Under the pieces are notes generated by a model. It made no database searches, was not told where the DNA came from, and was given only the letters and a program-made list of their open reading frames with translations. This document shows, piece by piece, positions 2,079-58,909 of a stretch of DNA of 64,000 nucleotides (position 1 is its first letter; each line of letters opens with the position of its first letter). A program made the translations under genes and the position numbers. Origin of the DNA: Bacteroidales bacterium (GTDB lineage Bacteria; Bacteroidota; Bacteroidia; Bacteroidales; Marinilabiliaceae); assembly GCA_024401395.1 (NCBI GenBank), contig JAKSLD010000014.1:1-64000 (forward strand), given 5' to 3'.

Positions 2079-2155
2079 GAGAGTAGCGGATGGGTATACG
2101 CTGGGTATATTCTGCGTATATGCTGGTCCCTTGTTCATCGTAATTTTTTTATTTT
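2079..2155 (+). repeat. 11-bp-period array A with conserved cap
   Basis: Tandem 11-bp units, clearest at 2094-2104, 2105-2115 and 2116-2126 (GTATACGCTGG, GTATATTCTGC, GTATATGCTGG), lead into the cap CCCTTGTTCATCGTAATTTT at 2128-2147 and a T-rich end. The same cap occurs at five other places in the window. Array B follows without a gap. Confidence 0.75.
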
Positions 2156-2231
2156 GTACACTCGGACTAGACTCGGGCTAGACTCGGGCTAGACTCGGAG
2201 AAGACCCTTGTTCATCGTAATTTTTTTATTT
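2156..2231 (+). repeat. 11-bp-period array B with conserved cap
   Basis: Four tandem units of 11 bp (2160-2170, 2171-2181, 2182-2192, 2193-2203), two of them identical (ACTCGGGCTAG), run into the cap CCCTTGTTCATCGTAATTTT at 2205-2224. Unit text differs from array A although period and cap are the same. With array A it fills most of the space between the structured RNA and the arabinan operon terminator. Confidence 0.8.
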
Positions 2232-2250
2232 GTGGGCTTGAGTGGAGGAT

Positions 2251-2283
2251 AAAAAAAGAGGCGCTGCTGGTGAGCAACGCCTC
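2251..2283 (-). terminator. Terminator of the arabinan-utilisation operon
   Basis: GAGGCGCTGCT (2258-2268) pairs with AGCAACGCCTC (2273-2283), one mismatch, GGTG loop, followed on the minus strand by seven T (2251-2257). It lies 6 nt past the GH43 stop codon and would end the four-gene operon. Confidence 0.88.
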
Positions 2284-2289
2284 TTGTGT

Positions 2290-3999
2290 TTAGTCGATTT
2301 TCTTACCCCAATAGGTCTTGTTGATAGACTTTTCGGTACCGGCGTAGACGATAGTGACTTCGCGAGGAGAAGACTCCCAGTCGAGCTCACGTTCAACGCA
2401 AACTACGACATTTCCGAGAGTAAGATACTTCTTCTCGGCATCGAAACTCCACTTGCCTGTGAGGGCACCCTTCATTGTACCATCGGCTTCAAGAACGAGA
2501 GCCTCAGCCTGATCCTGCTTTTCGAAATTATATCCAAGATTGATATGCTCCCAAGTACCTACGAGTTCATCGGCAGTAATAGGCTTATTACTCTCGTAGT
2601 GAGCATAACGTTCAGGGAGAGCTATAGGCCAGAGATCGTCGAGGTTATTAGGAGAAGAAGGACACCACACCAGGCGGCGTACGTGACCCATCATGATAGC
2701 ATTAGAATAAGCGTTACCGCCGACATTCTGAGGGAGACGACCCTGCGACATATAGAACCACTCACCAGAGCGATTCTGGAATGCGCACATATGAGAGATA
2801 CCAACCCAGCCATAGCCACGAGAGAACTTATAAGGGTGAGTAACGATTGGGAAGCAATCGCCTCCAGTTGTAATATCTACGCCACGGATATCCACATAAG
2901 GGCCATCGATATTACGGCTACGAGCCACGCGAGTATTATATGGGACATCCAGTCCGTCGTAAGCCATAAAGAGGTAGTAGTAACCATCCTTGTATATTAC
3001 CTCAGGAGCCTCGCTACCCTGCCAACGGCAATAAGACTTACCGGTAGGGATACGAGTAGCCACGCGCTTACCATAACGAGCCTGAAGAGCCTCGGCATTA
3101 TCTGCATAAGGGAGGCCAAGCTCATGGTCGGGCTTACCAGTAGAAGGATCAATCTTCAAGAGAGCGAAGCCAGAATGCCAAGAACCATGGATGAGATAAT
3201 GGTCGCCTTCGGGAGTTACTATATAAGTAGGGTCGATAGCATTATAGAAGAAATAAGCATCAGCCCAGCTATTGTTTCTTGCACGAGAAAAATCCTTACC
3301 CTTATCAGAAGAAGAGCAAGTCACGAAACCGAGGTCCTTCCAGTTGCCATTAGCAGGGTCAGTAGACTCACACACGCCGATGAAAGCACGTTCGGACCAA
3401 CTGCCATCGAAAGGTTCAGAAATTCTTTTACCCGACTTGATATAATTATCAATGACGATAGAATAGTACATACGGAGTTTTACCTGACCGTCGACAGAAA
3501 TACGGCGGACAACAGGAGCCCAGAAACCGAAAGAGATATTCTGCTTCTCTATCGGGTCGAGATTCATACTCTCGCGGATTTCGTTCAACTTAGTAACGAC
3601 CCAAGCTGGAGCATCGTTCAGAGGGCCAGGCACCCACTCCCAGTTTACGAGATCCTTAGAGCGCTTACCTTGGAAATGCTTACCGCGAGGAGCCTTTTCG
3701 TGCTCATTGCCATAAGAAGCGTCTGTGCCATACATATAATAATAGCCATCATAGTAAGCTACAGAAGGGTCATGGACATTAGCGAGGTTCCACTTATCGT
3801 GATTATTCCAACCTGCGATAGAGGCATAATCATCCTGATATGTAGGAATCTTGAAATCGTAAGGTTCGTCCTCTTCATCGGTTATATCAACATCTGGCTT
3901 CTGACCGCCAGTCTTGATGCCCTCTGGCTCATCCTCGCCACAAGAAGAGAATGAAAAAGCGACCAGAATGGCGAAAAGAGATAGTAACTGTTTCTTCAT
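2290..3999 (-). CDS. GH43 endo-1,5-alpha-L-arabinanase lipoprotein
   Basis: Likely cleaves alpha-1,5-arabinan, a pectin side chain, at the cell surface. A signal peptide ends in a lipobox with Cys20 (SFSSC). The five-bladed GH43 fold is marked by the catalytic base in HDPSV (Asp77), the modulating Asp in NAIDPTY (about 256) and the general acid in the SEAPEV segment (about 330-333). The last 90 residues look like the small C-terminal beta domain common in Bacteroidetes GH43 arabinanases. The ATG at 3999 is preferred; a frame extension to 4005 would need TTG. It is last in the operon, after susD, and is the only enzyme in it, so further arabinan enzymes and the regulator must be elsewhere. The exact GH43 subfamily is not certain. 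Confidence 0.88.
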   Translation of the reverse strand: MKKQLLSLFAILVAFSFSSCGEDEPEGIKTGGQKPDVDITDEEDEPYDFKIPTYQDDYASIAGWNNHDKWNLANVHDPSVAYYDGYYYMYGTDASYGNEHEKAPRGKHFQGKRSKDLVNWEWVPGPLNDAPAWVVTKLNEIRESMNLDPIEKQNISFGFWAPVVRRISVDGQVKLRMYYSIVIDNYIKSGKRISEPFDGSWSERAFIGVCESTDPANGNWKDLGFVTCSSSDKGKDFSRARNNSWADAYFFYNAIDPTYIVTPEGDHYLIHGSWHSGFALLKIDPSTGKPDHELGLPYADNAEALQARYGKRVATRIPTGKSYCRWQGSEAPEVIYKDGYYYLFMAYDGLDVPYNTRVARSRNIDGPYVDIRGVDITTGGDCFPIVTHPYKFSRGYGWVGISHMCAFQNRSGEWFYMSQGRLPQNVGGNAYSNAIMMGHVRRLVWCPSSPNNLDDLWPIALPERYAHYESNKPITADELVGTWEHINLGYNFEKQDQAEALVLEADGTMKGALTGKWSFDAEKKYLTLGNVVVCVERELDWESSPREVTIVYAGTEKSINKTYWGKKID

Positions 4000-4092
4000 C
4001 GTCAATTGTTGTTATGCATAAGGATGGGAAAATAAAAGCTTCCACACAGATGTTACGAGTGTGGAAGCCTTTATGTTTATTATTCTACAGTA

Positions 4093-11159: not shown

Positions 11160-11223
11160 AAAAAATTACGATGAACAAGGGACTTCCCTTATATCAGCAA
11201 GGGACTTGCAACGGATATCACTC
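11160..11223 (-). repeat. 11-bp-period array C with conserved cap
   Basis: On the minus strand, 11-bp units (GATATAAGGGA between two AGTCCCTTG-type units spaced 22 nt apart) run into the cap CCCTTGTTCATCGTAATTTT. Positions 11166-11223 are identical over 58 bp to 24313-24370 in the same orientation. The array lies beyond the adhesin terminator and points towards the arabinan operon. Confidence 0.8.
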
Positions 11224-11302: not shown

Positions 11303-14300
11303 TTATTCTACTATTACTTTGCGAGCTTCGTTGCCAATCTTGACTACATATACACCTCGCTCACGAATAGGGATAATTGTGCGTCCACTTGCTTTGTCAA
11401 CTGCATTGACAACCCTGCCAAGAAGATCATATACTCTTATAGATGGCATCGTTTCTTCTAACACGTCTTTTGTCTGAATTTCTACTACAATCGTAGAGCC
11501 TTCAGAGTATACTATATAGTGCTCAGCATCTTCATCACCTACAACAGACTCTTTGATGTCTGTAATCACTTCTTCTGGTGCTTCTGGCGCAGCCTTCAGT
11601 ATAATTCCAAAACGACTACCAGAATCCTTAGCCACTCCAGAAACTTCATAATCCTCTTCTCTGAGGTTAATGGTCTTCTGTGCCAAATGGTCGACTAGGA
11701 ATACGTCTACCATTTCGTCAAACCACAAAGCATTGCTTGCTGTAATACGCAACTTACTTTCTGTGCTAACTGGCTTTACTACCAATGGAAGCTCTACGTT
11801 GAGCAGTTTCTCCACTTGCGGATAAACTGCAATAGCCAGCTGATCTGGATAACCTGTCTTTCGCAGCACTAGTTGTGAAAGATTTGTATACGCGCCAAAT
11901 ACCTTTGAATCAAGATTCTTTATGTCTGACGCCATCGAACCTGACGCACGGAAAGCAAGCGCAACCTCATCATCTGCCTTTTCTTTCCCATCTGCATAAA
12001 CTTTGAGTCGCAATACATCCGTTTCTAGCTTCGATGATTTGAGCGCAGTATGTGTAACAGGAACCGGAGTGCTTGGCAATGCAAAATTAGGCACATCAGA
12101 ATATACAGCCAAACAGATATCTTGGAATGGAGCTAGCGTCTCACCATTTACTCCTATCTTCTCCTTAACATCGTATGTCATATAACCATAACCTGTACCA
12201 CCATTATTTGTACGTACCCAAATCTTTGGAGAAACCCAACCTGCTGAGCCAGTCATAAGGAATCCTCCGTCACGATCTGCTCTATATGTCTCATAATAAT
12301 CCGACAAAGAAACTGTATATGGATATGGATTATTGAACCAACGCCAGCCAGATGTGATAGCCATACGGTTAGCAGTCGCTGCTCGTGGTGTACCATTCTG
12401 AACGAATCCCTTGTCTGAACCACTTCTGAGCAGTACAGCATAGGCTGTAACATCATCGGAGAATTTATCAAACTGTGATATAATGTTCCCCATCCATTTG
12501 TTTCCTGTCTTGGAATAACAATCTACGACATCGACTTCCTTATCGATACCTGTATAAACTCCGTCCTTAGACGTTATTGTACCCTCAGCTGTTGCCGAAC
12601 CAGTATAGAATACAGCGCCGTGACGTAACTTACGATAGAAATCCGCACCTTCACCTGTGAAGGAACCTTTATATACCAGGGATGGACTGTCTGAACCATA
12701 ACCGTAATAGAGCTTTATCTCGCCTCTATTGTCAATGTTCTTCACTTCTAAAGTTCCACTGCCCTGAAGAATAATTGTTCCTTCATTCTGAAGAGTCTCA
12801 ACAATTCTAAGTGTTGATAGTTCCGTATCGCCTGGCTTACCTATGATAAGTGTAGCTCCTTGCTCTACAATTACACTGAGTGCAGTAGATGAAGAAGAAG
12901 CAACTACTGTCTTGCCACTAGGAATCAAAGCATAATGCTTTCCTGTTGGGAAGCCAAAATAATTATCATAGTTCTGCCAATTATTTGCAACATTCCACTG
13001 TCCGGTTGTACCTTCAGCTACACATTTGATTGCCTTAGCAATTGTATATACCACCTCATATTCTTGTCCTTCAAACTCAACCTTCACATAAATATCTCCA
13101 TCTGTAGTGAAGTTGTCTGTTGGCTGAAGCTCTGATTCGTCTTCCTGATTCTTTGCTTTTCTAAAATATGTGCAGTTCAAATCGCCCAACTCCAAATCAG
13201 TCCAATTATCATTATACTCAACTCTCACCATATGAGGATTACCATCCGATATTGCCACTGGGACTACAATTGTAGCCTTTGACAACTGAGAGTCTTTATG
13301 ATCACATGTAAGTTCAAGTATACCATCATTATATACCTTATCCCAATGGTGACCTTGCAGAGCAGCATTAGCATAGCCTGTAGTTGTATGGTCAATAGTC
13401 GGGCAGAAGTTCTTGGCGAAATAAACCACATTATCTTCGCCTACCTTGATAAATGTAGGATTATTATCACTACCAAGTTTCTGATACCACTTGACATCTT
13501 CACTAGACTGTCCGTTGAGCAAATACGTAGCCTTACCTGTTCTGAAATCTTCTGAGTTCAGAACCACCACATCTGTATTATTAGACTCAAGGGCATTATT
13601 CACGTAGCAGTTGAGGAATGACGTCATACTAGCATTTCTGCCAATAGAGCAACTACCTGTCTGTGCTGCTATATTAGCATTCACATAGCAATTCTCAACT
13701 GTACCTCTAAGATCTCCAAATGTACCGATAAGACCAGAGCAATTTGTAGCTTCTGCACCAGTCATGGAACCTATGAATGCACAGTTGGAAATCGTATAAC
13801 CCGTACCAGTAATTACACTTACGAGACCGGCATTGTTCGACTCGCCGACATACGTAGATGTGATATCTACATCTGAGATACAATTATTGAGAGTGACGAT
13901 ACCCTCCATATTATATCCTATGAGACCTGATGCATTTGAACTATTCGTAGAAATATTACCCTTGACAACAACATTCTCAATCGTAGATGTACCCACACGA
14001 GAGAAAAGAGCTGCGTATGGAGATGTAGACTCAAATCCAACTGTGATTGTATGACCGGCGCCATCGAAAACGCCCTTGAATGGGAACTCAGAAGTACCAA
14101 TCATATCTTGATAATAGCCCGACTCGTTTCTGAAATCAATATCTGATGTAAGAACTACCTTGATATCATTGCTGCCAGAGTTGACCATTCTCACAAAATA
14201 TAGGAAATCATCAGCATTGCCTATCTCATAGAAGCCATCTTCATTCTGTGTAAGACGATCTTCAAGAGTCTCTCGATCGGCATACAACACTGGATATACA

Positions 14301-17300
14301 TCAGGATTTGCGCCGATTATCTTCTGCCTCCACACACCATTCTCTTGACCCATATTCAGTAATCGCGCAACATCTCCGCTTGCAAACTGCTGCTCAGTTT
14401 GCTGTGTTACTCCCGTAGCAGGGATTGCACCAAGAGCATTGAGATAATAGCTGTTTGTATACTTCGCTTTGGTATAATCCGTTCTGATGAATGTCGCGTT
14501 GTCAACATCACTAGCAACATTATTCTTTATATATGCGAAACTGTTTGTTACGATATGGTCATAGTTTGACGCATTACCGACAAAACCACCTACGTATGTA
14601 GCATCTTCTGGCACTGTTATTGATCCCACATAAGCGCAGTTGTCAAATGTCAGTTTCCTATCAGAGGCTCCGACGAGTCCGCCACACCTAATCTGTCCAG
14701 TTTTCGACGTTTTCACATCGACAATAGCCATTGAATTTTCGAGTCGTAAAGCAGCGCTACGGTTTACTCCTACAAAACTAGCTACATAAGTACCTGTTGA
14801 CGAAACAGAGCCCTCAAGTATGAGATTCTTGATTGTCGGACCACTAGTCCACTGGAACAATCCTGCGTAAGAACCTGTTACACGGATATCTATCTTAATA
14901 GTCTTCAAATCTCCATCAAAAATACCCTTGTAGGCATTTTCCTGAGAGTTGCCGATCATTACAGAACGCTGCTGGCGGAAATCAATATCACTAATCAACT
15001 TTCCATTTATCGTATTCTGTCCACTATTTACCATAGCCGCGAACTGAACGAGATTATAAGTAGAACCGATTAGATAATAATCACCATCTTTAGACATTTG
15101 CCATTCTGACTTATAAGGGACTTCTTCTCCTGTCAAAAGTGGGTAAGCATCACAAGGCGAAAAAGACGTATTCTGATACCATGTGACCTCACCTTCTGCC
15201 TTGCCATCATTCAATAGATAGCAGACAAATCCTTCATCAAACAACTCCTTGCTCATCTTTGCACCTTGTACTGTTCCAAGGTTTGAGAGATAATAACAAT
15301 TTGCGAAAGTGGAAGAACCAGAACTATAACAGAACGTTGCACTATTTTCGGCTAGTTCCACATCTATACTTAAGTTGGCATCTGGCAAATAGACAAAACT
15401 ATTGCTGAAACGAATGGTCTTACCTGAACCTGATCCTACCAAGCCTCCAACAAACTTACCCTCTACATCAACTCCTGTTGCCCTTATAGTACCTGCAAAT
15501 GCACAATTATTGACAATTGCATAATGACATTCAATGCGACCTACAAGACCACCCAGATATAGAGCATCATTATGAACACCCTCTTTAACCGATGTATAAG
15601 AAGAACTGATATTGGCAAAACTCATACAATTACGTAGTGTCATCGGAGCAGTCATATTTCTACCAACAATACTACCTGTGTATTGTTTTGTGGTTGTCAC
15701 ATTACCTTCAATAATAAGATTTTGGATAGTAGCACCTGACACGACACTAAATAGACCAGTATAGCCAACGGTAGTATTATATCCAAGTGTAATCTTATGA
15801 TATTGACCATCAAACTCACCCGCAAACATATTTGTACTATTACCTATCATTGTCTGATAATACTTACCGGAAGTATTCTTGAAATCAATATCTGCTGTCA
15901 CTTGAGCCTTTATCGTTGTCTGACCACCATTTACCATAGAGGCAAAAGTCACAAGGTCTTGTGCTGTAGCAATCTGGTAATAGTCGCCTACCTTTGTAAG
16001 TTCTGTTGATTTAATTATGTGGTGACTATTATCCAACACTGGATAAGAATCAACCAGTTCTCCTTCAAGGATGTTATCTTCTGTATTCTGATACCATATA
16101 GGATTCTGAGACTGAGATCCATTGAGAAGCAGACATACCGATCCATCGGCAAAATCAGTCTGTGACATCTGGTCTCCTTGGAGAATGCCCAATTCTGTTA
16201 GGAAATAGCAACTGATATATGTACTAGCCTGACCAGCACCGTAACAGAACGTATAGCTGTTCTCCATAATATCTAAGGCTACACTCTCTGCAGGGAGATA
16301 GGTATAACAACTCTTGAACACTCCTGTTCTGTTTCCACCATTACCAACGAAACCAGCAACCCTTTGAGACTTTTGTGCCGTAGAACTTGCCCCCTCCTTG
16401 AGTGTACCGATGAAAGCACAGTTCTCAACATAGTACTTATCAGTCGCATTCGCATAACCTATAAGACCGCCACAATACAATGGCTCGTCATTATGCTGAC
16501 CATCCGTAACACTTGAGTATCTTGATTCGATATCTACTTTACTGATACAATTCTCCAGTCTACATGTCGTCCCCTTGATGTATCCTATGAAGCTACCGGC
16601 ATACTGCTTGTTGGTCGTAATTTTTCCATCAAGATATAAATTCTTAATAGTAGCTTCAGCTGCATAACGGAACAAACCAGTATATGAAGATGTTGTTTCG
16701 TACCCAATAGTTATTGTATAGTACTGCCCATCAAATGTACCTGAATATGGGTTAGTCGCATTACCTATCATTGACTGATAGAATTTGCCTTGAGCGTCTG
16801 TAAGCTCGATATCATTCATAACACGGGCATCAACATTATTGTTACCCGCATTGACCATAGCGGCGAAAAGAACAATATCAAATGAAGTTCTCAACTCATA
16901 CACTCCATCTACTGGTTGAAGCTGAGTAGGGCACGATTTAGTGTCACCCGAAGGTACAAATACAGGATCATTGTCATCTGCACCCTGCTTCCACACATTA
17001 TCATCATCCGAAGTACAACCATTAAGAAGATAAGTCGCCGTGCCATCACGGAACTGATCTACAGTGAGCTGAACTACCTGAGGTTCGCCGAGAACACTTG
17101 AACTGTAACAATTAGAGAACTCTGTAACGCCGCCAGAAGTAGCCACCATAGTACCACTACCCGCTGTATTTGACACATTAAACGTTGCGTCAACATAACA
17201 ACCTGTCAAGGTACCACTAGTATTGGCACGGCCTATCAGTCCACCACATACCTTACCAGCAGCTGGATAAGTGATCGAACCGAGGAATGCACAATTTGTC

Positions 17301-20300
17301 AGTTTATATCCCTTGTTAACCCAGTATATAAGACCAATCATACCACCATACTGAGTTTCACTACTACCATTGTAGGTACTTGTAATATCAACATAGCTGA
17401 TGCAATTCTCCATTGTCAACGGCGTAGGGATATTTGAATCATTCACAACCTCGTAATTATTACAACCTACAATAGCACCACAATAAACACCACCTGCCGT
17501 AATATCACCTCTGACAATCAAGTTTCTGATAGTAGCAGTCTTAACATGAGAGAAGAGTCCCACATAACTATTATTGCTGTTATAATGAACAGTTACAGAA
17601 TGGTACTGACCGTCGAAAGTACCCACATAAGGATTCTGTTCAGTACCAATCATCATATTGCTGTTTGGCTCAAGCTCTATATCACCAATCAACTTACCAT
17701 TAATGTTGGTCTGACCATTATTTACAAGATTAGCAAATTCCTTCAACTGCTCCAGTGTTTCTATTACGTATGTATCTCCCTCTGGTGTGAGTGTACTCAT
17801 ATTTACGATTTCGTGAGTTGGATCAAGAACCGGATAAACATCAAAATCAATTGGGTGCTCATCCGTTTGAACATTCTGATACCATACTACATTTTCTTCC
17901 TCTGCACTACTACCGTTTAGCAGAAAACAAACAGCACCATTAGCGAACTCATCTGACGTTTTCTGTTCAGCACCAGCCTCTTGCATGTCACCGAAAGGAT
18001 TCAGATAGTAGAGAGACGCTGATACTGAGGATTTGCTGGCATTTCTGACGAAAGAAGCACTTCCTGCTGGATTGGTAATATTCAATGTTGCATGTGCGAA
18101 GCTGTTATTGTAGTGAATGACCTTACCATTGGCATTGCCCACAAAACCACCTACCAATGCTGCGCTAGGAGCTACGGCCACTATACTACCTGTGAAAGCA
18201 CTATTAGTAATCTTACTGTAGTTGACATTCAACAAACCGACCAATCCACCAGCGTGAATATTGCCATCGTACGTCGATACTATATTTACATTCGAAATAC
18301 ATCTATCCATCGTCAGAGGATTATTCAACACATAACCCACTATTGATGCTGGATAATTTTTAGTTGTTTGTACACTACCTTTAACTATCAAATCATGAAT
18401 ATTCGCACCATCAACATAGCTGAATAGCGCTGAATATGAAAGCTGGGTATCATAACCCACAGTAACCGTCTTGCCATTACCATCAAAAGAACCTGTATAT
18501 GGATAAGTCGCATTACCTATCATGGCCTGATAGTAGGATGTTGACTCTCCTTCAGACTCTCCGAACACAATATCCTCCATCAACTTAGCATTGAGAGATA
18601 CCTGACCATCATTGACTAGAGATGCAAAACGAAGAAGATGCATTGGAGTACGCAATAGATATGTACCATCTTGATCCACCTCCATATCATCCTGAGGAAT
18701 AAACTTACCTCTCTCAGCTATGAGAACTGGATATGCATCATAATCGACCTGACCTTCAGATTCCTTTACCTTCTGGTACCATGCAACGGATACAGATTCG
18801 TCTGTCGGACAGTTATTGAGCAAGTAGCATACAGATCCATCTAGGAATTTTTCATCAGACATCTGTGAACCCTGTTCAAGACCTAATCTCTGACGATAAT
18901 AACAGTTGTTGAATATTGTACTTGCAGCAGGATAGAGGCAAAGAGAAGCACAATAATCTGTGGACGAAAGGCGATACTCATCTACATAAGCATAACAATT
19001 AGTAAAAATACCTTTCACACTTCCACCATGGCCGACCAAACCTGATGAATAGTCTGAATTTGAAGCATCTCCCAATAGTTTGCCTGCAAATGCACAATTC
19101 GTGAATCGATAATCTGCCACTTTCATATAACCAGCAAGACCTCCGATATAAGATTTTTTATCGGCACCTACATACGTAGATGTTACGGTAGCATAACTCA
19201 TACAATTCTCCAGTGTAACAGGAGCTGTCTTATCCTTATTGTATCCAATAATACTACCGATTAACTGACCTTTACTAGTAACATTACCATCTACTATGAG
19301 ATTCATTATAGTTGAACCAGCCACACAACTGAACAATGCTGCATATCTCTGACGGGTATCAAGATGAAGAGTAATCTTATGGAACTGACCATCGAATACG
19401 CCCTCATAAGGAGCATCCTCTGTACCGATCATCTCCTGGTATGTATAGTCAATATCATTCTCAAGACGTCCACTAATACGGGTTACTCCCATATTAACTA
19501 TAGATGCAAAAGTTCGCAACTCCTCTGGAGTAGATATCAGGAACACATAATTATCGTCATTACGGAATGCCGGAGAAGGAGGTGTGAGATTGCCATGGCT
19601 GCTTAGCAAAACAGGGAATCTGTCCGTATCGTTTTGATACCACACCAATTCGCTCAAGCCGAAACCATTCAATGCATCACATACTGTACCATTGCCGAAA
19701 TCTTCAGGAGTCATAGCGTTACCCTGCTTTATCATCGAACCGTTAAGACTAGAATCGTAATAACAATTACGGAAATAAGATTCCTGGCGTGTTGAGAACG
19801 AGAATACTGCACAGTCAGCATAAGTATCAGACATTTCGAACGATGTAGGGAATACGTAGCAATTGTTAAAATAACCGATATAACCAGAAGTTCCCACCAT
19901 ACCGCCGCACATATTCTTGCCTTTTATACTTCCTACGAATGCACAATTTGATATCTTATAATAATGACATACGGCATAACCTATAAGTCCACCTATACGA
20001 GTTTCAGCACTTGCGTAAGTAGATTCAATATTGACATAACTCATACAGTTCTCCAGTGTAACAGGAGATTTGGTATTTGCTGCTACCAAACCTGAAGCAT
20101 ACTGACTGTTCGACTTTACGTTTCCATCTACTATAAGATTCTTAATAGTTGCTCCAGCAACATAACCAAACAGAGAAAGATACTTACCGACAGTATTATA
20201 GTTGATCGTAATTTTATGGAACTTACCATCAAACATACCTTCGTATGGATACTGTTCACTACCTATCATCTCACCATAGCTAGTAAAGTCTATATCGCGC

Positions 20301-23300
20301 TGAAGAACACCTGTAATATCAGTCATACCTTGATTAACCATTCCGGCGAACTTCATCAAATGCTCCGGTGTACTGATAAGGTATCTACCATACTCATCCT
20401 TTGGCACCTCTATAGAAGCAGGCTGCTCGTGGGTATCGTCGAGAACAGGATACATATCGATTACCTCACTTTGCGTCACGCCTTCCACATTCTGATACCA
20501 AACACCTGTCTCTCCGTCTTGAACTGTAGAATTAAGAAGCTGACATACCGTACCATCCTTGAATTCTTCAAGCGTCTTAGACGAACCTTGAGCTGTACCA
20601 AGAGGATTGAGGTAATAACAGTTATTGTAGACAGTATTGGTACCCTGACTACGGCAGAATGCATAACAATTTGAAGCTCCTGTTATATTATAGGTTGCAA
20701 CAGAATAACAATTAGTAAAGAATCCTCGCTTACTGTTTCCTGCTCCTACAAAACCAGCCGCAGACTTAGCATCTGGCTGGGTAGCCGTGAGACTGCCAGT
20801 AAATGCACAGTTTGTGATATGGTATAGATTAGCTGTTGAATAACCTATGATGCCTCCAGAATGAATTTCTCCGTTGAGCGTCGATTCTATTGCCACATTA
20901 CTGATACATTTCTCTATTGTTACGGGATTAGTGATATTACGACCTACATAACTTGCAGCAAAATTCTTTGTCGTCGTGATATTGCCATCAAGGTATAGCT
21001 TTTTGATTGTTGCCCCTGAAACCCATCCGAACATAGCAGTATATGACCAGTACGATTTCAGTCCTAGAGTAATTGTATTGCCATTGCCATCAAATACTCC
21101 CTCATAAGGATATCGTTCACTCCCTATCATTTCCTGATAGAACCTGGAACCTTCTCCGTATGTTATATCCTCTGTAACCTTTGCATTGAGAGCCGGGTTA
21201 CCATTGTTTACCATTGCAGAGAACAATAGGAGATCATTGGCGTTTGATATCTCGTAGCAATTTTCTTCCTCATTATATGTGAGAGGAAGAATCGCTTGAT
21301 GGTTCTCCTCAGAAATAATAGGATAATTATCCGAACCTAAATTCTGCCCCCATACTATATTCTCGTCTGACAAGCCCGCGCTCAGCAACGAACAAAGTGT
21401 ACCATTCTGAACTTCTTCTGAAGTAAGCTTAGTACATTGTCCCGTCGGGAAAACAAAATCACTACTATAGTAACAGTTGACAATTCTTGAATCTGTATTA
21501 GTATAACGGAACAAAGAACATCCCGTAGGAGATACCGCTGCATTACTATGTCCGGCGACTGTAATTCGTGGACAAGCATAACAGTTTGAAGCAAGAACTA
21601 TCTTGTTATTGCCGTAGCCAATCAGTCCAGATGCGCCTGTTGACTTTGTCCTATCATTCTTTATGCTACCGACAAAAGCACAATTTCGGATAACACAATT
21701 ACTGACAGTAGGGCTAGCTATCAAGCCTGCTGTATACATCTCTCCATCAAGCGTAGAAATGATATCTACAGAACTTACACAACGCTCAAGAGTTACTGGT
21801 GCAGTAAGGTTTTGTCCAACGAAACTTGCACAATAGTTAGTGTTTGTAGTGATAGATCCTGCAAGATTCAAGTCTTTGATAGTCGCGCTTGAAACGAAGC
21901 TAAATAGTGCAGCATAAGCAGATTTTGTATTGTAGCCAAGAGTAATAATATGTCTTCCTCCATCAAAAACACCAGCATATGGATTGACGGATGTTCCTAT
22001 CATATTCTGATAGTAATTATCCTGGTCATCCTTGAAATCAATATCCGCAGTTACCCTGCCATTTATTCCTGACTCTCCTGCGTTAACCATCTTGGCAAAT
22101 AGAGCTAGGTCGGCTGCATTATTTATCAAATAATAGCCTTCACCATCCGGCTCCAAAGTCTCAATATCTGATATATGTGCGGTATGTGCTCTATCCAAAA
22201 CAGGATATACGTCAACTTCCCCTTCCAAATTCTGAAACCAAATAGCAGTCTCTTCTGTCTTACCGAAGTTGAGGAGCTTACATACCGTACCATTTTCAAA
22301 TTCCTCAGCAGATTTCTTTTCTCCCAAATTATTAGTAGCATTACTGCCTGGAGAATTAAGATAATAGCTATCTACAGTAGTTATACCCTTACTATTAGTT
22401 CCTGAGAAAGAACCAGCATTACTATGAGCAGAACCTCCAGAATATGTAGCAGCTACATAACTATTTGAAATAGTAACAACACGACTATGAGGATTGCCTA
22501 CAAAGCCACCTGTCACAAGGCTATTTGCCTTCCTTGTGATAGTACCAATATAAGCACACTCCTTTATCTCTACTTGACCTGCATCGATATAACCAATCAG
22601 ACCACCAGAATAGTGTCTTGATGTCTGGATATTAACTTTACTTATACATCTCTCTAATCTGGCTGAGCCGGCACAATAGCCAATTATACCTGCGGCATAC
22701 TCTTGTGTCGTCTGTATATTACCTTTGACTGTAAGATCGTGAACATAAAATCCCTCAGCAGTATAGTAGAACAAACCTGTAAGGCGAATGCCATTCTCAT
22801 AATTAACGGTCACAGAGTGACCATCACCATCAAACTCTCCTTTGTAACGGTACGTATAGTTGCCTATCATAGTCTGATAGCTGCTAATGTCAATATCTTT
22901 CGTAAGTTTACCTTTTATATCCACACGACCAGTATTGACCATAGCAGCAAATTTTAGAAAATCATACGCTGTACCTATTTCATAGACTCCTTCTCCATTA
23001 GCGACTAGTTCTTCACCCAAATCTTCACTAAGGCCTTCTGATCTGAACTCTAGAATCTTATTCCATACGCCTTCATTCTTTGCTCCGTTAAGGAGAAACG
23101 CTACACGACCATCAGAAACATTCGTAAAGACATCTCCTTGTTTATCTGTCAAAGTATTCTTATAATAACAATTACTATACCTTACATATTCTCCATTGTT
23201 AACCAACGAATTAGTGGTAGAACATTCTCTGTATTCAGCCGTGGCAAAGCAATTCAATACTGCACCTGTATAGCTAGCACCTCCTGCATCTGCTATTATA

Positions 23301-23917
23301 CCGGCTACATACGTAGTACTACCATTACCTTTTATATTTCCTTTGAATCCGCAGTCAGACAATAAGTATGCTGTCTTATTGGCATCTGCACAATGCGCTA
23401 CAATACCTGCTGCATAAGCGCCTGCACCTACATTAGTCTCTATTTTTACATTTGATATCACATTCCTGATTTCAAATGCTCCTATGGCATTAGCAACGAC
23501 ACCAGCTACATATGGATCACTAGTGGTTATATATCCGGCTACTTTGAGATCGTGTATCTTGGCACCATTAATATAAGCAAACAATGCCGTATATGAAGTT
23601 GAACTTTTATAATCAATTTCTATCGTAAAACGATTTCCATCAAATTCTCCAGCATATCTATGCTCACTAGTACCTATCATTATAGGTGTCAATTCATCAT
23701 CTGAAGTAAAATCTATAGAGTTGACCAATCTAGCATTTAGATTTACTTTACCTTCATTAACCTGCTGCGCAAACCAAAGCAATTCTTCATAAGAAGACAA
23801 CTCATAAAAGCCATCACTCTCTGACTGACTTGGAGCAGTCTGAGCAAAAACATCTAGCTTTGACATTATAGCCATCAAGGCTAACAAAAATATATATGTA
23901 TATTTCTTCATAATCAT
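11303..23917 (-). CDS. Giant repeat adhesin with T9SS sorting domain (GLUG-like repeats)
   Basis: 4204 residues. Sec signal peptide ending FAQ (start ATG 23917 or ATG 23911). Twelve tandem units of about 290 residues follow (about 26-3500). Each has a helical cap (FAAMVNxG), a DIDF...MIG...YxGxFDG segment, beta-helix rungs with GLUG-like GGLIGY / NCAFxGS text, and an ending NCYY...LLN...WYQN...YPVL. The MIG motif lies near 23680, 22860, 22000, 21120, 20270, 19430, 18510, 17650, 16760, 15840, 14950 and 14098. A C-terminal region of about 700 residues ends in a type A T9SS sorting domain (RVYDLLGRVV..., GVYVVKIGNEARKVIVE). Expected on the cell surface; adhesion is inferred. Units have diverged, so slippage is unlikely. 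Follows the small 84-residue gene by 12 nt. Confidence 0.9.
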   Translation of the reverse strand: MIMKKYTYIFLLALMAIMSKLDVFAQTAPSQSESDGFYELSSYEELLWFAQQVNEGKVNLNARLVNSIDFTSDDELTPIMIGTSEHRYAGEFDGNRFTIEIDYKSSTSYTALFAYINGAKIHDLKVAGYITTSDPYVAGVVANAIGAFEIRNVISNVKIETNVGAGAYAAGIVAHCADANKTAYLLSDCGFKGNIKGNGSTTYVAGIIADAGGASYTGAVLNCFATAEYRECSTTNSLVNNGEYVRYSNCYYKNTLTDKQGDVFTNVSDGRVAFLLNGAKNEGVWNKILEFRSEGLSEDLGEELVANGEGVYEIGTAYDFLKFAAMVNTGRVDIKGKLTKDIDISSYQTMIGNYTYRYKGEFDGDGHSVTVNYENGIRLTGLFYYTAEGFYVHDLTVKGNIQTTQEYAAGIIGYCAGSARLERCISKVNIQTSRHYSGGLIGYIDAGQVEIKECAYIGTITRKANSLVTGGFVGNPHSRVVTISNSYVAATYSGGSAHSNAGSFSGTNSKGITTVDSYYLNSPGSNATNNLGEKKSAEEFENGTVCKLLNFGKTEETAIWFQNLEGEVDVYPVLDRAHTAHISDIETLEPDGEGYYLINNAADLALFAKMVNAGESGINGRVTADIDFKDDQDNYYQNMIGTSVNPYAGVFDGGRHIITLGYNTKSAYAALFSFVSSATIKDLNLAGSITTNTNYCASFVGQNLTAPVTLERCVSSVDIISTLDGEMYTAGLIASPTVSNCVIRNCAFVGSIKNDRTKSTGASGLIGYGNNKIVLASNCYACPRITVAGHSNAAVSPTGCSLFRYTNTDSRIVNCYYSSDFVFPTGQCTKLTSEEVQNGTLCSLLSAGLSDENIVWGQNLGSDNYPIISEENHQAILPLTYNEEENCYEISNANDLLLFSAMVNNGNPALNAKVTEDITYGEGSRFYQEMIGSERYPYEGVFDGNGNTITLGLKSYWSYTAMFGWVSGATIKKLYLDGNITTTKNFAASYVGRNITNPVTIEKCISNVAIESTLNGEIHSGGIIGYSTANLYHITNCAFTGSLTATQPDAKSAAGFVGAGNSKRGFFTNCYSVATYNITGASNCYAFCRSQGTNTVYNNCYYLNPLGTAQGSSKTLEEFKDGTVCQLLNSTVQDGETGVWYQNVEGVTQSEVIDMYPVLDDTHEQPASIEVPKDEYGRYLISTPEHLMKFAGMVNQGMTDITGVLQRDIDFTSYGEMIGSEQYPYEGMFDGKFHKITINYNTVGKYLSLFGYVAGATIKNLIVDGNVKSNSQYASGLVAANTKSPVTLENCMSYVNIESTYASAETRIGGLIGYAVCHYYKISNCAFVGSIKGKNMCGGMVGTSGYIGYFNNCYVFPTSFEMSDTYADCAVFSFSTRQESYFRNCYYDSSLNGSMIKQGNAMTPEDFGNGTVCDALNGFGLSELVWYQNDTDRFPVLLSSHGNLTPPSPAFRNDDNYVFLISTPEELRTFASIVNMGVTRISGRLENDIDYTYQEMIGTEDAPYEGVFDGQFHKITLHLDTRQRYAALFSCVAGSTIMNLIVDGNVTSKGQLIGSIIGYNKDKTAPVTLENCMSYATVTSTYVGADKKSYIGGLAGYMKVADYRFTNCAFAGKLLGDASNSDYSSGLVGHGGSVKGIFTNCYAYVDEYRLSSTDYCASLCLYPAASTIFNNCYYRQRLGLEQGSQMSDEKFLDGSVCYLLNNCPTDESVSVAWYQKVKESEGQVDYDAYPVLIAERGKFIPQDDMEVDQDGTYLLRTPMHLLRFASLVNDGQVSLNAKLMEDIVFGESEGESTSYYQAMIGNATYPYTGSFDGNGKTVTVGYDTQLSYSALFSYVDGANIHDLIVKGSVQTTKNYPASIVGYVLNNPLTMDRCISNVNIVSTYDGNIHAGGLVGLLNVNYSKITNSAFTGSIVAVAPSAALVGGFVGNANGKVIHYNNSFAHATLNITNPAGSASFVRNASKSSVSASLYYLNPFGDMQEAGAEQKTSDEFANGAVCFLLNGSSAEEENVVWYQNVQTDEHPIDFDVYPVLDPTHEIVNMSTLTPEGDTYVIETLEQLKEFANLVNNGQTNINGKLIGDIELEPNSNMMIGTEQNPYVGTFDGQYHSVTVHYNSNNSYVGLFSHVKTATIRNLIVRGDITAGGVYCGAIVGCNNYEVVNDSNIPTPLTMENCISYVDITSTYNGSSETQYGGMIGLIYWVNKGYKLTNCAFLGSITYPAAGKVCGGLIGRANTSGTLTGCYVDATFNVSNTAGSGTMVATSGGVTEFSNCYSSSVLGEPQVVQLTVDQFRDGTATYLLNGCTSDDDNVWKQGADDNDPVFVPSGDTKSCPTQLQPVDGVYELRTSFDIVLFAAMVNAGNNNVDARVMNDIELTDAQGKFYQSMIGNATNPYSGTFDGQYYTITIGYETTSSYTGLFRYAAEATIKNLYLDGKITTNKQYAGSFIGYIKGTTCRLENCISKVDIESRYSSVTDGQHNDEPLYCGGLIGYANATDKYYVENCAFIGTLKEGASSTAQKSQRVAGFVGNGGNRTGVFKSCYTYLPAESVALDIMENSYTFCYGAGQASTYISCYFLTELGILQGDQMSQTDFADGSVCLLLNGSQSQNPIWYQNTEDNILEGELVDSYPVLDNSHHIIKSTELTKVGDYYQIATAQDLVTFASMVNGGQTTIKAQVTADIDFKNTSGKYYQTMIGNSTNMFAGEFDGQYHKITLGYNTTVGYTGLFSVVSGATIQNLIIEGNVTTTKQYTGSIVGRNMTAPMTLRNCMSFANISSSYTSVKEGVHNDALYLGGLVGRIECHYAIVNNCAFAGTIRATGVDVEGKFVGGLVGSGSGKTIRFSNSFVYLPDANLSIDVELAENSATFCYSSGSSTFANCYYLSNLGTVQGAKMSKELFDEGFVCYLLNDGKAEGEVTWYQNTSFSPCDAYPLLTGEEVPYKSEWQMSKDGDYYLIGSTYNLVQFAAMVNSGQNTINGKLISDIDFRQQRSVMIGNSQENAYKGIFDGDLKTIKIDIRVTGSYAGLFQWTSGPTIKNLILEGSVSSTGTYVASFVGVNRSAALRLENSMAIVDVKTSKTGQIRCGGLVGASDRKLTFDNCAYVGSITVPEDATYVGGFVGNASNYDHIVTNSFAYIKNNVASDVDNATFIRTDYTKAKYTNSYYLNALGAIPATGVTQQTEQQFASGDVARLLNMGQENGVWRQKIIGANPDVYPVLYADRETLEDRLTQNEDGFYEIGNADDFLYFVRMVNSGSNDIKVVLTSDIDFRNESGYYQDMIGTSEFPFKGVFDGAGHTITVGFESTSPYAALFSRVGTSTIENVVVKGNISTNSSNASGLIGYNMEGIVTLNNCISDVDITSTYVGESNNAGLVSVITGTGYTISNCAFIGSMTGAEATNCSGLIGTFGDLRGTVENCYVNANIAAQTGSCSIGRNASMTSFLNCYVNNALESNNTDVVVLNSEDFRTGKATYLLNGQSSEDVKWYQKLGSDNNPTFIKVGEDNVVYFAKNFCPTIDHTTTGYANAALQGHHWDKVYNDGILELTCDHKDSQLSKATIVVPVAISDGNPHMVRVEYNDNWTDLELGDLNCTYFRKAKNQEDESELQPTDNFTTDGDIYVKVEFEGQEYEVVYTIAKAIKCVAEGTTGQWNVANNWQNYDNYFGFPTGKHYALIPSGKTVVASSSSTALSVIVEQGATLIIGKPGDTELSTLRIVETLQNEGTIILQGSGTLEVKNIDNRGEIKLYYGYGSDSPSLVYKGSFTGEGADFYRKLRHGAVFYTGSATAEGTITSKDGVYTGIDKEVDVVDCYSKTGNKWMGNIISQFDKFSDDVTAYAVLLRSGSDKGFVQNGTPRAATANRMAITSGWRWFNNPYPYTVSLSDYYETYRADRDGGFLMTGSAGWVSPKIWVRTNNGGTGYGYMTYDVKEKIGVNGETLAPFQDICLAVYSDVPNFALPSTPVPVTHTALKSSKLETDVLRLKVYADGKEKADDEVALAFRASGSMASDIKNLDSKVFGAYTNLSQLVLRKTGYPDQLAIAVYPQVEKLLNVELPLVVKPVSTESKLRITASNALWFDEMVDVFLVDHLAQKTINLREEDYEVSGVAKDSGSRFGIILKAAPEAPEEVITDIKESVVGDEDAEHYIVYSEGSTIVVEIQTKDVLEETMPSIRVYDLLGRVVNAVDKASGRTIIPIRERGVYVVKIGNEARKVIVE

Positions 23918-24308: not shown

Positions 24309-24370
24309 AAATTTACGATGAACAAGGGACTTCCCTTATATCAGCAAGGGACTTGCAACGGATATCACTC
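24309..24370 (-). repeat. 11-bp-period array D with conserved cap
   Basis: Identical over 58 bp (24313-24370) to array C at 11166-11223, same orientation. Its outer end contains the TGA stop codon of the ABC exporter (24365-24367), so the repeat reaches into the coding sequence. Confidence 0.85.
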
Positions 24371-26198: not shown

Positions 26199-27368
26199 TT
26201 AATAGTTATTTAACATCAACTTGAATGTCGTTCCTTCTCCTTCCTTGCTCTCCACAGATATCCTGCCACCGTGCATGCTGATAATCTGACGACATATACT
26301 CAAGCCGATACCGGAACCAGTGCTCTTGGTGGTGAAGAATGGAACGAATATCTGCTCTGCTACATCTGGAGGCATACCAGGACCGTTGTCTGATATCTCA
26401 ATATAGAAGCGGTTATTCGGACGGTCGGAATATGTTTTTACCACAATATGCGGACGCGGAGTCTCATTACATGCTTCGACGGCATTCTTTATCAGGTTAA
26501 TCAATACTTGCTCCATCTGGGATTGGTCAACAAGAATATTCTCTGTACCGTCTTCTACAACAAATGTTATAGCTGGATTAGGGAATAATTGCTGCAGGTC
26601 ATTGATAATATCATTTAGTACCACCCACTCTTTCTGAGGTTGAGAAACTCGTGATACTTTACGGAACGACTCTACGAAATTAAGCAGACCTTGACTCCTT
26701 CTATAAATAGCCTGAAGTGCCATCTGCAAATCGGTCTTGTCTATATCGCCTTCTTCTATGGAATGGTTGAGCGTATCGGAAAGGGAAATAATCGGAGAAA
26801 GTGAATTCATAATCTCGTGGGTCAATACCCTGACAAGTTTCTTCTGGGCATCGACCTCATTCTGACGGAGCACTGACTGGACATCCTCAATACTGAATAG
26901 TTTCATATCCATGCCATGACGATTGTATCTGGTCATAGATATACTCCATTCTACCATGGTACCTTTTATCATCAGGCTGACAAGTTTTTGCTGTCCGGCT
27001 GACAATGATTCCAATTCCTGCACCAATGTCTCATTCAGTACCGACAACTGTTTCAGTTTTTCTATCTTGAATCCGCATAAACCCTTTATGGCAGCCTCAC
27101 TCATCCAGTCGACCTCCCCAAGATCATCAGCCACGATAAGATATGTGTTTGATCTATTGAGCAAGGCCTCAAGATAACCATATTGAGACTCTATGCGCCG
27201 ACTTGTATCTCGGAATTCAGATATAGTGTCATTTATTTCATAGGCGAGTTTCAGCTCCTCTCCGCGCAGATTCTGCTCGTTGAAGTGCAAAGAGTAGTCC
27301 CTGGCCTTTATGGAAGCCAGCATCAGTCTTAGTCGTTTGATACTTTTATTCCTGAACCAACCAAACAT
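26199..27368 (-). CDS. Soluble sensor histidine kinase (NtrB/NtrY-like)
   Basis: 389 residues, no signal peptide or membrane segment, so it should sense a cytoplasmic cue or a partner protein. Weak PAS-like region (about 65-165), then the phospho-acceptor His184 in VLTHEIMNSLSP, the N box NLIKNAVEA (about 294), G1 DNGPGMP, F box FVPFFTTK and G2 GSGIGLS. All motifs needed for autophosphorylation are present. It follows the NtrC-type regulator by 8 nt on the same strand, so the regulator is its natural target. Signal unknown. Confidence 0.9.
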   Translation of the reverse strand: MFGWFRNKSIKRLRLMLASIKARDYSLHFNEQNLRGEELKLAYEINDTISEFRDTSRRIESQYGYLEALLNRSNTYLIVADDLGEVDWMSEAAIKGLCGFKIEKLKQLSVLNETLVQELESLSAGQQKLVSLMIKGTMVEWSISMTRYNRHGMDMKLFSIEDVQSVLRQNEVDAQKKLVRVLTHEIMNSLSPIISLSDTLNHSIEEGDIDKTDLQMALQAIYRRSQGLLNFVESFRKVSRVSQPQKEWVVLNDIINDLQQLFPNPAITFVVEDGTENILVDQSQMEQVLINLIKNAVEACNETPRPHIVVKTYSDRPNNRFYIEISDNGPGMPPDVAEQIFVPFFTTKSTGSGIGLSICRQIISMHGGRISVESKEGEGTTFKLMLNNY

Positions 27369-32432: not shown

Positions 32433-32433
32433 C

Positions 32434-38598: not shown

Positions 38599-38735
38599 GC
38601 CATAAGGAAGGTAGAAGGAAGGCATAAGGGAAGTATAAGAGAGATATAAGGTTGCTCGCAGTTTTTATATTATGGAATCATCGGGAAGTCATACACTAAT
38701 CCAAGGGAAGTCCCTTGTTCATCGTAATTTTTTAA
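38599..38735 (+). repeat. 11-bp-period array E with conserved cap, upstream of dcw
   Basis: Eleven consecutive 11-bp units can be read without a break from 38599 to 38719, for example GCCATAAGGAA (38599), GGCATAAGGGA (38621), AGTATAAGAGA (38632), GATATAAGGTT (38643), AGTCATACACT (38687), AATCCAAGGGA (38698), then the cap CCCTTGTTCATCGTAATTTT (38712-38731). The unit GATATAAGG recurs in arrays C and D. It fills the space between the terminator and the mraZ promoter. Confidence 0.8.
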
Positions 38736-57346: not shown

Positions 57347-57799
57347 TTAAATGATTACCATCTGGTTCTCATTTGTTGTCTTCTCGCAGAAATGGCAACG
57401 GAATGCCAAAGGCGACTTGCTTATGACACGGAAGCGAGTCGTGATAGGCTGATGGTTCGTAACGCACTTAGGATTCATACACTTTACATAGCCTATTACC
57501 TCATCAGGCACAGCCACCATGCGCTTCTCAACAACTTCGTAGTTACGTATTATGTTCAGCTTAGCCTGTGGAGCCACGAGAGCAATCTTGTTTATCTCGT
57601 CGCCCTCGAAAAACTTATCAGCAACCTTAATGATACTCTTTCTGCCAAGTTTATGGCTCTCGAGATTAGTTCCAAAAGTTATCTGATTTGGGATATGCTC
57701 AAGTCCAAGAATAGAGATTACCTTAAAGAGGTTCTCTGCAGGAATACGATCTATTACTGTTCCGTCCTTAATAGCGGATACCTTAAGTTCCTTCTGCAT
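57347..57799 (-). CDS. pyrI: Aspartate carbamoyltransferase regulatory chain
   Basis: 150 residues. Binds CTP/ATP and regulates PyrB. N-terminal allosteric domain (KVSAIKDGTVIDRIPAENLFKVISIL) and C-terminal zinc domain with four Cys (CMNPKCVTNHQP...CHFCE, about 109-141). It lies 30 nt downstream of pyrB, the usual order in the PyrBI holoenzyme. Its presence predicts allosteric feedback control of pyrimidine synthesis. Confidence 0.96.
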   Translation of the reverse strand: MQKELKVSAIKDGTVIDRIPAENLFKVISILGLEHIPNQITFGTNLESHKLGRKSIIKVADKFFEGDEINKIALVAPQAKLNIIRNYEVVEKRMVAVPDEVIGYVKCMNPKCVTNHQPITTRFRVISKSPLAFRCHFCEKTTNENQMVII

Positions 57800-57829
57800 A
57801 ATTATTTCCTTTTATCAATTATAAAGAAA

Positions 57830-58741
57830 TTACTTTACACCCATAATAGCTGCGATGATAGCCATACGGGTATACATACCATTCTCAGCCTGCTGGAAGT
57901 AGTATGCCTTTGGATTAGCATCCACGTCCTCCGAGATCTCATTCACTCTTGGCAGTGGGTGAAGTATCTTGAGATTATCCTTAGTATTGGCAAGCATTTC
58001 ATTGCGAAGTACATATGTGTTCTTCACGCGCTCATACTCCATAAGGTCGGCGAAACGTTCCTTCTGTACTCGGGTCATATAGAGAATATCAGCCTCATTC
58101 AATACGGCATTCATATCCTTATGCTCCTCATACTTGATGCCTCTGTGATCGAGGAACTCCTTATACTCGTCCGGCATCTTGAGTTCATCTGGCGACACGA
58201 AATAGAAAGTAGGTTCGAAATCGGCCATAGCCTGAATGAGTGAATGCACAGTGCGGCCATATTTCATATCACCCACCATAGCAATCTTCAAGTGGTCGAG
58301 ATGACCCTGAGTCTTCATCATTGAATACATGTCGAGCAAAGTCTGCGAAGGGTGCTGATTAGCACCATCACCTGCATTTACAACTGGTACTCTTGACTGC
58401 TCGCTTGCATATCGAGCTGCGCCCTCCAATGGGTGACGCATCACGATTAGGTCGGCATAATTAGATACCATCTTGATAGTATCTTTCAGTGTCTCGCCCT
58501 TTGTCGTAGAAGTTGCATTTACATCCGAGAAGCCGATTACACGTGCGCCCAGGCGGTTCATTGCCGTCTCGAAACTGAGTCGTGTACGGGTAGATGGTTC
58601 GAAGAATAGGCTCGCAATGATGTGTCCTTGAAGAAGTGGCTGATGTGGATTTTTTTCGAAATCGGCAGCCAACTCGAGAATGCGAAGAATCTCGTCCTTA
58701 GTGAAATCCGTAATGGATACGAGACTTTTATTTTTAATCAT
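57830..58741 (-). CDS. pyrB: Aspartate carbamoyltransferase catalytic chain
   Basis: 303 residues; joins carbamoyl phosphate and aspartate, the first committed step of pyrimidine synthesis. Carbamoyl-phosphate motif [18 protein letters not shown] (about 47-64), [26 protein letters not shown] and LPRVNEI near the end. The ATG at 58741 is chosen: the next upstream ATG (58774) lies inside the predicted -7 box. First gene of pyrB-pyrI-SPOR-YqeY. Confidence 0.96.
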
Positions 58742-58771
58742 GGGATTATATTTTGAAGCATTATCGAGATG

Positions 58772-58779
58772 CAAATATA
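58772..58779 (-). promoter_or_regulatory. -7 box TATATTTG of pyrB
   Basis: Perfect TAnnTTTG on the minus strand; RNA would start near 58765 with a leader of about 24 nt. No well-spaced TTTG is seen upstream, so activation or a weak promoter is possible. Confidence 0.5.
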
Positions 58780-58843
58780 GTGCTTTTTGAGGTATTATAT
58801 ACCCTTATCTTTGTCAAAAAAGACTATAATAGTTATTGTTGAT

Positions 58844-58909
58844 AATATAGGCGTAGTCTATGGCTAGTCATAGAGAGCACCCTTGTTCATCGTAATTTTT
58901 TTATATTTG
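58844..58909 (+). repeat. 11-bp-period array F with conserved cap, merging into a promoter
   Basis: Units AATATAGGCGT (58844), AGTCTATGGCT (58855), AGTCATAGAGA (58866), then the cap CCCTTGTTCATCGTAATTTT (58880-58899). The T-rich end of the cap runs straight into TATATTTG (58902-58909), a perfect -7 box for the flippase gene. Confidence 0.75.
58884..58909 (+). promoter_or_regulatory. Promoter of the flippase gene inside the repeat cap
   Basis: TATATTTG at 58902-58909 matches TAnnTTTG. TTG of the cap (58883-58885) could serve as -33 although the 16-nt spacer is short. RNA would start near 58916, which excludes a start codon at 58883 and supports ATG 58934. Confidence 0.5.

What the first reader, a model, noticed from the sequence alone, without database searches (positions are those of the whole stretch)
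2128..58899. One 20-nt cap sequence, CCCTTGTTCATCGTAATTTT, at six intergenic sites
Exact copies (either strand) at 2128 (+), 2205 (+), 11160-11181 (-, cap part), 24309-24330 (-, cap part; one A/T difference in the T tract), 38712 (+) and 58880 (+). Each copy terminates an 11-bp-period array and is followed by T-rich DNA. Five exact copies and one near-copy of a 20-mer in 64 kb cannot be chance. Fixed orientation relative to the array implies a composite element with a defined end: a protein binding site, promoter part, or replication/transposition end.
Basis: seen in the sequence. Interest (0 to 1): 0.85.

Follow-up and report, generated by a model that had tools for sequence, protein, structure and literature searches.

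The report
Capped 11-bp arrays with companion gene
In a gut-type Bacteroidales bacterium, the same 20-letter sequence closes off variable 11-letter repeat arrays at well over a hundred places, mostly between genes, and also sits in front of many copies of an unknown multi-copy gene, which suggests an undescribed spreading repeat with its own companion protein.

Summary
The 20-mer has 56 exact sites and 194 at up to 3 mismatches in the 3.3-Mb genome; the reversed control has none. It ends arrays with a strict 11-bp period and variable units (best lag 11 in 75 of 105; control 22 of 224). Neighbouring caps are direct (21 of 21 pairs) and spaced by multiples of 11 (20 of 21). The cap shows almost no decay tail, although most array units are unique.

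(1) A multi-copy orphan gene (about 164 aa, no Pfam match) has a same-strand cap within 300 bp upstream in 17 of 25 copies, against 48 of 885 other genes. (2) Two congeners carry a different cap, GAAAGTACGTGTTTCG, on some 11-bp arrays and before the same gene family. (3) The family has ten or more matches in exactly the 6 of 15 genus genomes with either cap.

Best reading: a dispersing repeat family with a companion protein, working like REPIN-RAYT but failing its membership tests. The protein's role and the mobilisation step are inferred.

The parts
2091..2127 (+). 11-bp-period array before the first cap
   Evidence: TRF 2091-2126, period 11
2128..2147 (+). cap, exact, followed by a T run
2148..2204 (+). 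T run and ACTCGG-type 11-bp array between two direct caps (cap-to-cap distance 77 = 7 x 11)
2205..2224 (+). cap, exact
11182..11220 (-). short 11-bp array before the cap, identical with the one at 24329-24367
   Evidence: by eye
11162..11181 (-). cap, exact
24329..24367 (-). short 11-bp array; its first three bases are the stop codon of ORF 24365-26143
   Evidence: by eye
24309..24328 (-). cap with one mismatch (A for T in the T tract), the commonest variant elsewhere in the genome
38602..38711 (+). 11-bp array, degenerate cap GTTGCTCGCAGTTTT at 38651 (66 bp before the exact one), and weaker array
38712..38731 (+). cap, exact
58850..58879 (+). two to three array-like units
   Evidence: by eye; weakest of the six
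58880..58899 (+). cap, exact, followed by TTTATATTTG

Best explanation
The 20-mer is the fixed 3' end (cap) of a dispersed, non-palindromic repeat that keeps an exact 11-bp register. It belongs to a two-part system: solo elements (array plus cap) and units in which the cap stands before a multi-copy orphan gene of about 150-190 codons. Shown: the cap, the register, direct-only tandem caps, constraint on the cap against variability of the array, presence/absence between species, duplication of whole units from a degenerate cap to the stop codon, and co-occurrence of the gene family with two unrelated cap sequences within one genus. Inferred: the orphan protein recognises its genome's cap, perhaps binds along the array one helical turn at a time, and promotes copying of elements into other intergenic sites, in one species largely with one polarity to replication. 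Solo elements would then be its passengers. Recombination between copies adds gains and losses in multiples of 11 bp and some gene-order breaks.
For: Copy number and control. Register and unit pattern. Cap without decay tail: 42, 51, 14, 4 and 10 sites at 0-4 mismatches against 0, 0, 0, 0 and 1 for the reversed control. Turnover: of 11 collinear G000-G011 intervals with an element, 7 G000 only, 1 G011 only, 3 shared (two further intervals dropped as coding matches); an exact 66-bp cap-plus-array difference between G008 and G000. Gene link: 17 of 25 copies against 48 of 885 other genes, and the only enriched paralogue family in held DNA. Unit duplication with sharp ends. Second cap with the same gene family and 11-bp arrays. 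Ten or more family matches in exactly the six genus genomes with dispersed caps.
Against: No transposase or recombinase domain was recognised in the orphan protein, and structure searches were uninformative. No clean insertion junction or target duplication was seen; most empty sites cannot be aligned base by base. Cap number does not scale with gene number: at up to 2 mismatches G000 175, G011 43, G008 40, G010 12 sites against 27, 10, 17, 20 gene matches. In G011 only 1 of 5 held gene copies had a cap close upstream. Polarity to GC skew is clear only in G011. The genus genomes are related, so co-occurrence is not six independent events. Even spacing also fits maintained sites.
Confidence: 0.5

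Rival explanations
1. Chromosomal binding sites: the orphan proteins are architectural or regulatory DNA-binding proteins, the cap is a nucleation site, and the 11-bp array lets protomers line up on one face of the helix. Sites are kept by selection in cis and are not mobile in themselves; gene copies carry the cap because they regulate themselves.
For: Cap nearly free of decay; positional constraint in otherwise variable units; loci more evenly spaced than random; polarity to GC skew in G011; cap before many copies of the gene itself.
Against: Only 3 of 11 collinear intervals share the element between G000 and G011; element numbers differ widely between sister species; whole cap-to-stop units are duplicated.
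Confidence: 0.25
2. No dedicated machinery: minisatellites expanded by slippage and unequal exchange and were spread and homogenised by gene conversion; the orphan genes ride along as ordinary duplicated segments.
For: Spacings are multiples of 11; 66-bp indel; tandem copies of 77 bp at C12:20.2k; breaks in gene order partly at caps; congeners without caps have 7-bp arrays, so array growth is general in the genus.
Against: Gene conversion should homogenise the arrays too, yet 323 of 420 unit slots hold distinct 11-mers while the cap is constant; no other paralogue family is linked to caps; a second cap sequence marks the same gene family.
Confidence: 0.15
3. A regulatory signal of adjacent genes (promoter half or terminator).
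For: T run after the cap; often close to terminators; same-strand TAnnTTTG boxes within 160 bp downstream are commoner than genome average (40 against 10.6 expected in G000).
Against: No constant distance to such a box; element strand independent of flanking genes in G000; the downstream boxes can be the ordinary promoters of the next gene.
Confidence: 0.05
4. A MITE or BrickBuilt-like element with inverted ends.
For: Mostly intergenic, multi-copy, minisatellite core; two loci (L002, L003) show an inverted degenerate cap before the array (by eye), and C2 has two opposite caps 0.3 kb apart.
Against: Neighbouring caps direct in 21 of 21 (G000) and 22 of 23 (G011) pairs in the stretches scanned.
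Confidence: 0.03

Closest known systems
REP/REPIN elements with RAYT (TnpA-REP) genes (PMC3116915: abstract seen; PMC6006769: abstract sentence and passages seen)
   Same: More than a hundred short extragenic copies in one genome; a companion gene lies next to its own repeat; genomes carry different repeat sequences with the same kind of gene.
   Different: Caps are non-palindromic and direct, not inverted doublets; no Y1 transposase in G000; the companion gene is a multi-copy orphan; an 11-bp array in register precedes the repeat.
BrickBuilt of Porphyromonas gingivalis (PMC4596501: abstract and section 5 read)
   Same: Bacteroidales, intergenic, tandem array of imperfect units with conserved flanking sequence.
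   Different: There: 23-nt units, 19 copies, small inverted-repeat ends, no companion gene named in what I read. Here: 11-bp units, 194 cap sites, no paired inverted ends, companion gene.
Intergenic heptamer arrays, e.g. TAACTGA repeats (PMC4679880: abstract read); STRR of cyanobacteria (recalled)
   Same: Short-period direct repeats dispersed between genes; the paper reports five Bacteroidetes with such arrays. Congeners G003 and G004 have 7-bp arrays.
   Different: Fixed heptamer there; here 11-bp units of varying sequence with a constant cap.
IS200/IS605-type elements that use the lagging-strand template (PMC6006769, passages)
   Same: Polarity relative to replication, clear here only in G011; no inverted ends.
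   Different: No PF01797 match in G000, G008 or G011 at E up to 0.001; one in G010.

Membership tests
REPIN-RAYT | palindromic repeats arranged as inverted doublets | tested here: not met
   21 of 21 pairs direct in G000, 22 of 23 in G011
REPIN-RAYT | Y1/HUH transposase gene in the genome | tested here: not met
   no PF01797 match at E up to 0.001 in G000 (nor G008, G011); G010 has one
REPIN-RAYT | many short extragenic copies | tested here: met
   194 sites; 89 of 120 loci in intergenic regions of at least 80 bp on greedy ORF calls
REPIN-RAYT | companion gene next to its own repeat | tested here: met
   17 of 25 copies same strand, 3 opposite, 5 none; but the gene is not a RAYT
REPIN-RAYT | movement of the repeat by the gene product | not testable with these tools
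   needs strains or experiments
BrickBuilt / MITE | inverted-repeat ends | tested here: not met
   a few inverted caps elsewhere
BrickBuilt / MITE | target-site duplication | tested here: inconclusive
   intergenic flanks of empty sites mostly cannot be aligned
BrickBuilt / MITE | 23-nt tandem unit (BrickBuilt) | tested here: not met
   period 11 (22 as its double)
Heptamer / STRR arrays | 7-bp unit of fixed sequence | tested here: not met
   period 11, 323 distinct 11-mers in 420 slots
IS200/IS605 | orientation biased with replication | tested here: inconclusive
   strong in G011 (0.68 against 0.10 for T tracts), weak in G000 (0.30 against 0.15); GC skew is only a proxy
IS200/IS605 | TnpA of the Y1 family | tested here: not met
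Known fold of the orphan protein | clear structural match | tested here: inconclusive

The most novel reading that the evidence does not exclude
A new class of bacterial selfish or symbiotic repeat: a small multi-copy protein of unknown fold recognises a genome-specific cap and propagates 11-bp phased arrays (one turn per protomer) through intergenic DNA without any known transposase, with cap and protein co-evolving, so that species of one genus carry different caps on the same architecture.
Probability: 0.3. Interest if true: 0.9.

Novelty: new variant of a known kind. Interest (0 to 1): 0.7.

Why it matters
If right, a dispersed bacterial repeat is run by a protein outside the transposase families tested here, and keeps exact helical register while its sequence drifts. 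It would give a second, independent example beside REPIN-RAYT of a repeat population tied to a companion gene, with two caps within one genus as a natural specificity test. It would also give a function to a family of orphan genes and help to explain gene-order breaks in these bacteria.

Tried and rejected
RAYT/IS200: PF01797 absent in G000, G008 and G011, one match in G010. Promoter half-site: no fixed box distance. Element with inverted ends: direct neighbours. My first impression that all breaks in gene order lie at caps did not hold on the larger sample; the enrichment is partial. Four viral-contig stretches (L198-L201) and four Verrucomicrobia stretches (L031-L033, L042) show no array and look like chance or coding matches; the single G018 site has no array. 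Orphan protein: no Pfam match (scattered single-member hits only), one spurious NCBIfam hit, two weak PHROGs hits, none in plasmids or phages, no convincing solved-structure relative by sequence, only weak fold matches. GC-skew polarity was first overrated for G000: T tracts away from caps also correlate weakly. Paper searches gave no description of this repeat; a paper on orientation of transposable elements that is cited in PMC6006769 is not held.
Full report
The observation. The 20-mer CCCTTGTTCATCGTAATTTT occurs at the six places named, five exact and one with one mismatch; 100 shuffles give none. Genome-wide there are 194 sites at up to 3 mismatches and 175 at up to 2; 56 in the listing are exact. 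The reversed pattern gives none. Among 40 relatives, three of the same genus have the 20-mer in numbers at up to 2 mismatches (G011 43, G008 40, G010 12), and G018 has one stray site.

Anatomy. In G000 the 66 bp before the cap are periodic at 11 bp: mean identity 0.447 at lag 11 and 0.386 at lag 22, 0.23-0.28 at the other lags from 4 to 24. Lag 11 is the best lag in 75 of 105 elements, against 22 of 224 control intergenic pieces (113 elements listed, 8 dropped because another cap core lay in the 66 bp). Units vary (323 distinct 11-mers in 420 slots), but counting from 0 unit position 6 is C or G in 95%, position 7 A or T in 98% and position 8 A or G in 96%. Cap cores within 500 bp of each other are direct in 21 of 21 pairs in G000, with a spacing that is a multiple of 11 in 20 of 21; in G011 22 of 23 are direct and 19 of those 22 are multiples of 11. 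The cap is the constant part: in 1.246 Mb of G000 there are 42, 51, 14, 4 and 10 sites at 0, 1, 2, 3 and 4 mismatches, against 0, 0, 0, 0 and 1 for the reversed control. Changes sit mostly at positions 1, 14 and 17 and in the CA pair; GC, GG and AC replace CA elsewhere. G011 uses the same cap; before it the best lag is 9 in 13 of 38 elements, 18 in 7 and 11 in 5, with 9-bp TAGTTATTC-type units further out and 11-bp spacing next to the cap and between caps.

Placement. On greedy ORF of 120 loci lie in intergenic regions of at least 80 bp; in co-directional regions 23 lie on the gene strand and 27 on the other. Some caps fall inside called ORFs, partly because the calls are crude. Loci within such regions are more evenly spaced than random choice of regions (CV 0.72 against 0.91, P 0.005-0.006). 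Cap strand follows local GC skew in G011 (r 0.68, n 37) far more than T tracts away from caps (r 0.10, n 164; z 3.9); in G000 the excess is small and not significant (0.30, n 112, against 0.15, n 271; z 1.4). A looser cap definition gives 0.32 (n 120) and 0.63 (n 49). The ribosomal L22 gene lies on the minus strand at C44 122 kb, where skew is negative, so the G-rich strand is plausibly the leading one.

Turnover. One search lists 13 collinear G000-G011 intervals with a cap core; I dropped two whose match lies in aligned coding sequence. Of the other 11, 3 are shared in the same orientation (one of them, C45 32.9 kb, judged by eye because the G011 caps fall outside the search pattern), 7 are G000 only and 1 is G011 only. 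Between G008 and G000 one locus with alignable flanks differs by exactly 66 bp, one cap plus array. At one pair of loci the partners on the two sides of the element are exchanged between species with orientation kept. Over the junctions of the held stretches, breaks in gene order contain caps more often with G011 as reference (10 of 31 against 3 of 44 collinear, P 0.005) but not clearly with G000 as reference (10 of 21 against 12 of 43, P 0.10). G011 stretches were chosen around caps, and gaps at breaks may be longer; both could add to this.

Companion gene. Comparison of flanks showed a repeated orphan gene behind several caps. G000 has 27 matches (by my count 25 copies, one second match within a copy and one remnant), G010 20, G008 17, G011 10; of the other eleven genus genomes only G006 (2) and G005 (1) match this query, weakly. 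With a cap definition that also takes TTGCTCGCAG-type cores, 17 of 25 copies have a same-strand cap within 300 bp upstream, 3 an opposite one, 5 none. Background in held DNA is 48 of 885 other genes (binomial 2e-16). In an all-against-all screen of held DNA this is the only paralogue family enriched near caps (8 of 9; next best P 0.08). In G011 the link is weaker (1 of 5 held copies with a cap close upstream). Units are duplicated from a degenerate 5' cap to the stop codon: C34 and C44 share 608 bp at 88.8%; C34 and G008 share 673 bp at 95.4%; G008 and G010 agree over 1980 bp and part at the stop codon. The site in G000 that corresponds to the G008 unit holds a shortened copy. The protein has no Pfam match; its model (mean pLDDT 77, pTM 0.53) has two strands and several helices and no convincing fold match. 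In 71 genomes of the family, a profile of the protein matches 9: 8 in this genus and one weakly elsewhere.

A second cap. A G006 homologue as query finds 13 matches in G006, 11 in G005, 2 each in G002 and G003 and 1 in G012. Of 13 G005/G006 gene loci viewed, 10 hold GTACGTGTT near the gene, 9 of them on the gene strand upstream. GAAAGTACGTGTTTCG at up to 1 mismatch has 28 sites in G005, 12 in G006 and none in the other 13 genus genomes (reversed control 1 in G005). Some of the sites viewed end an 11-bp array, most clearly G005 L360 (0.77 identity at lag 11) and L328 (0.70); many show little or none. So a different cap stands on the same kind of array and before the same gene family. Genomes with ten or more family matches are exactly the six with dispersed caps of either kind; the other nine have at most two.

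What it is. Best reading (0.5): a dispersing repeat family with a companion protein. It works like REPIN-RAYT but is not a member, since inverted doublets and a Y1 transposase were tested and not found in G000. Binding and mobilisation by the orphan protein are inference. The main rival (0.25) is a fixed chromosomal binding site of the same proteins: turnover speaks against it, cap constraint and spacing for it. Literature seen: BrickBuilt (abstract and one section), TAACTGA repeats (abstract), REPINs (abstract), lagging-strand elements (passages). Searches for this repeat in print listed nothing that describes it.

Limits. At least the three relatives with this cap are draft MAGs; gene calls are greedy ORFs; relatedness within the genus was not modelled; no close-strain insertion junction was available; GC skew stands in for replication direction; only about 38% of G000 and 28% of G011 was examined beyond the pattern and protein searches.

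Noticed in passing
window 11166-11220 and 24313-24367: A 55-bp identical direct repeat (array plus cap core) lies on both sides of a 4204-aa ORF (11303-23917); in G011 the flanks at 26233 and 10988 are adjacent, so the whole segment is missing there.
   Followed up: partly
window 16607-16620 (+): CTTGTTGGTCGTAATTTTT, a cap-like sequence on the opposite strand of the long ORF, without an array; probably chance.
   Followed up: no
L242-L251 (G003), L252-L261 (G004): Congeners without this cap carry dispersed 7-bp-period arrays of several unit sequences at 60 and 80 regions per Mb, against about 10 in G000.
   Followed up: partly
G011 stretches L178-L197: Arrays there use a 9-bp TAGTTATTC-type unit upstream of the 11-bp part next to the cap.
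   Followed up: partly
L269-L298, upstream of the orphan genes: Several copies share GTAACCTT, then about 14-16 bp, then CGTA(T/A)AA between cap and start codon, with or without a cap; it may be a promoter or operator (by eye).
   Followed up: no
G000 C47 about 59.8-60.4 kb: Tandem copies of a roughly 81-bp segment, downstream of a cap, shared with a single copy at C47 about 93.6 kb.
   Followed up: no
G000 C34 74490-74588, C9 21.8 and 34.5 kb, C23 52.5 kb, L052: Another repeat of about 100 bp, near or downstream of some caps, 78-99% identical between places.
   Followed up: no
G000 C34 74648-74910: A shortened copy of the orphan-gene unit: upstream array kept, cap and first part of the gene missing.
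   Followed up: partly
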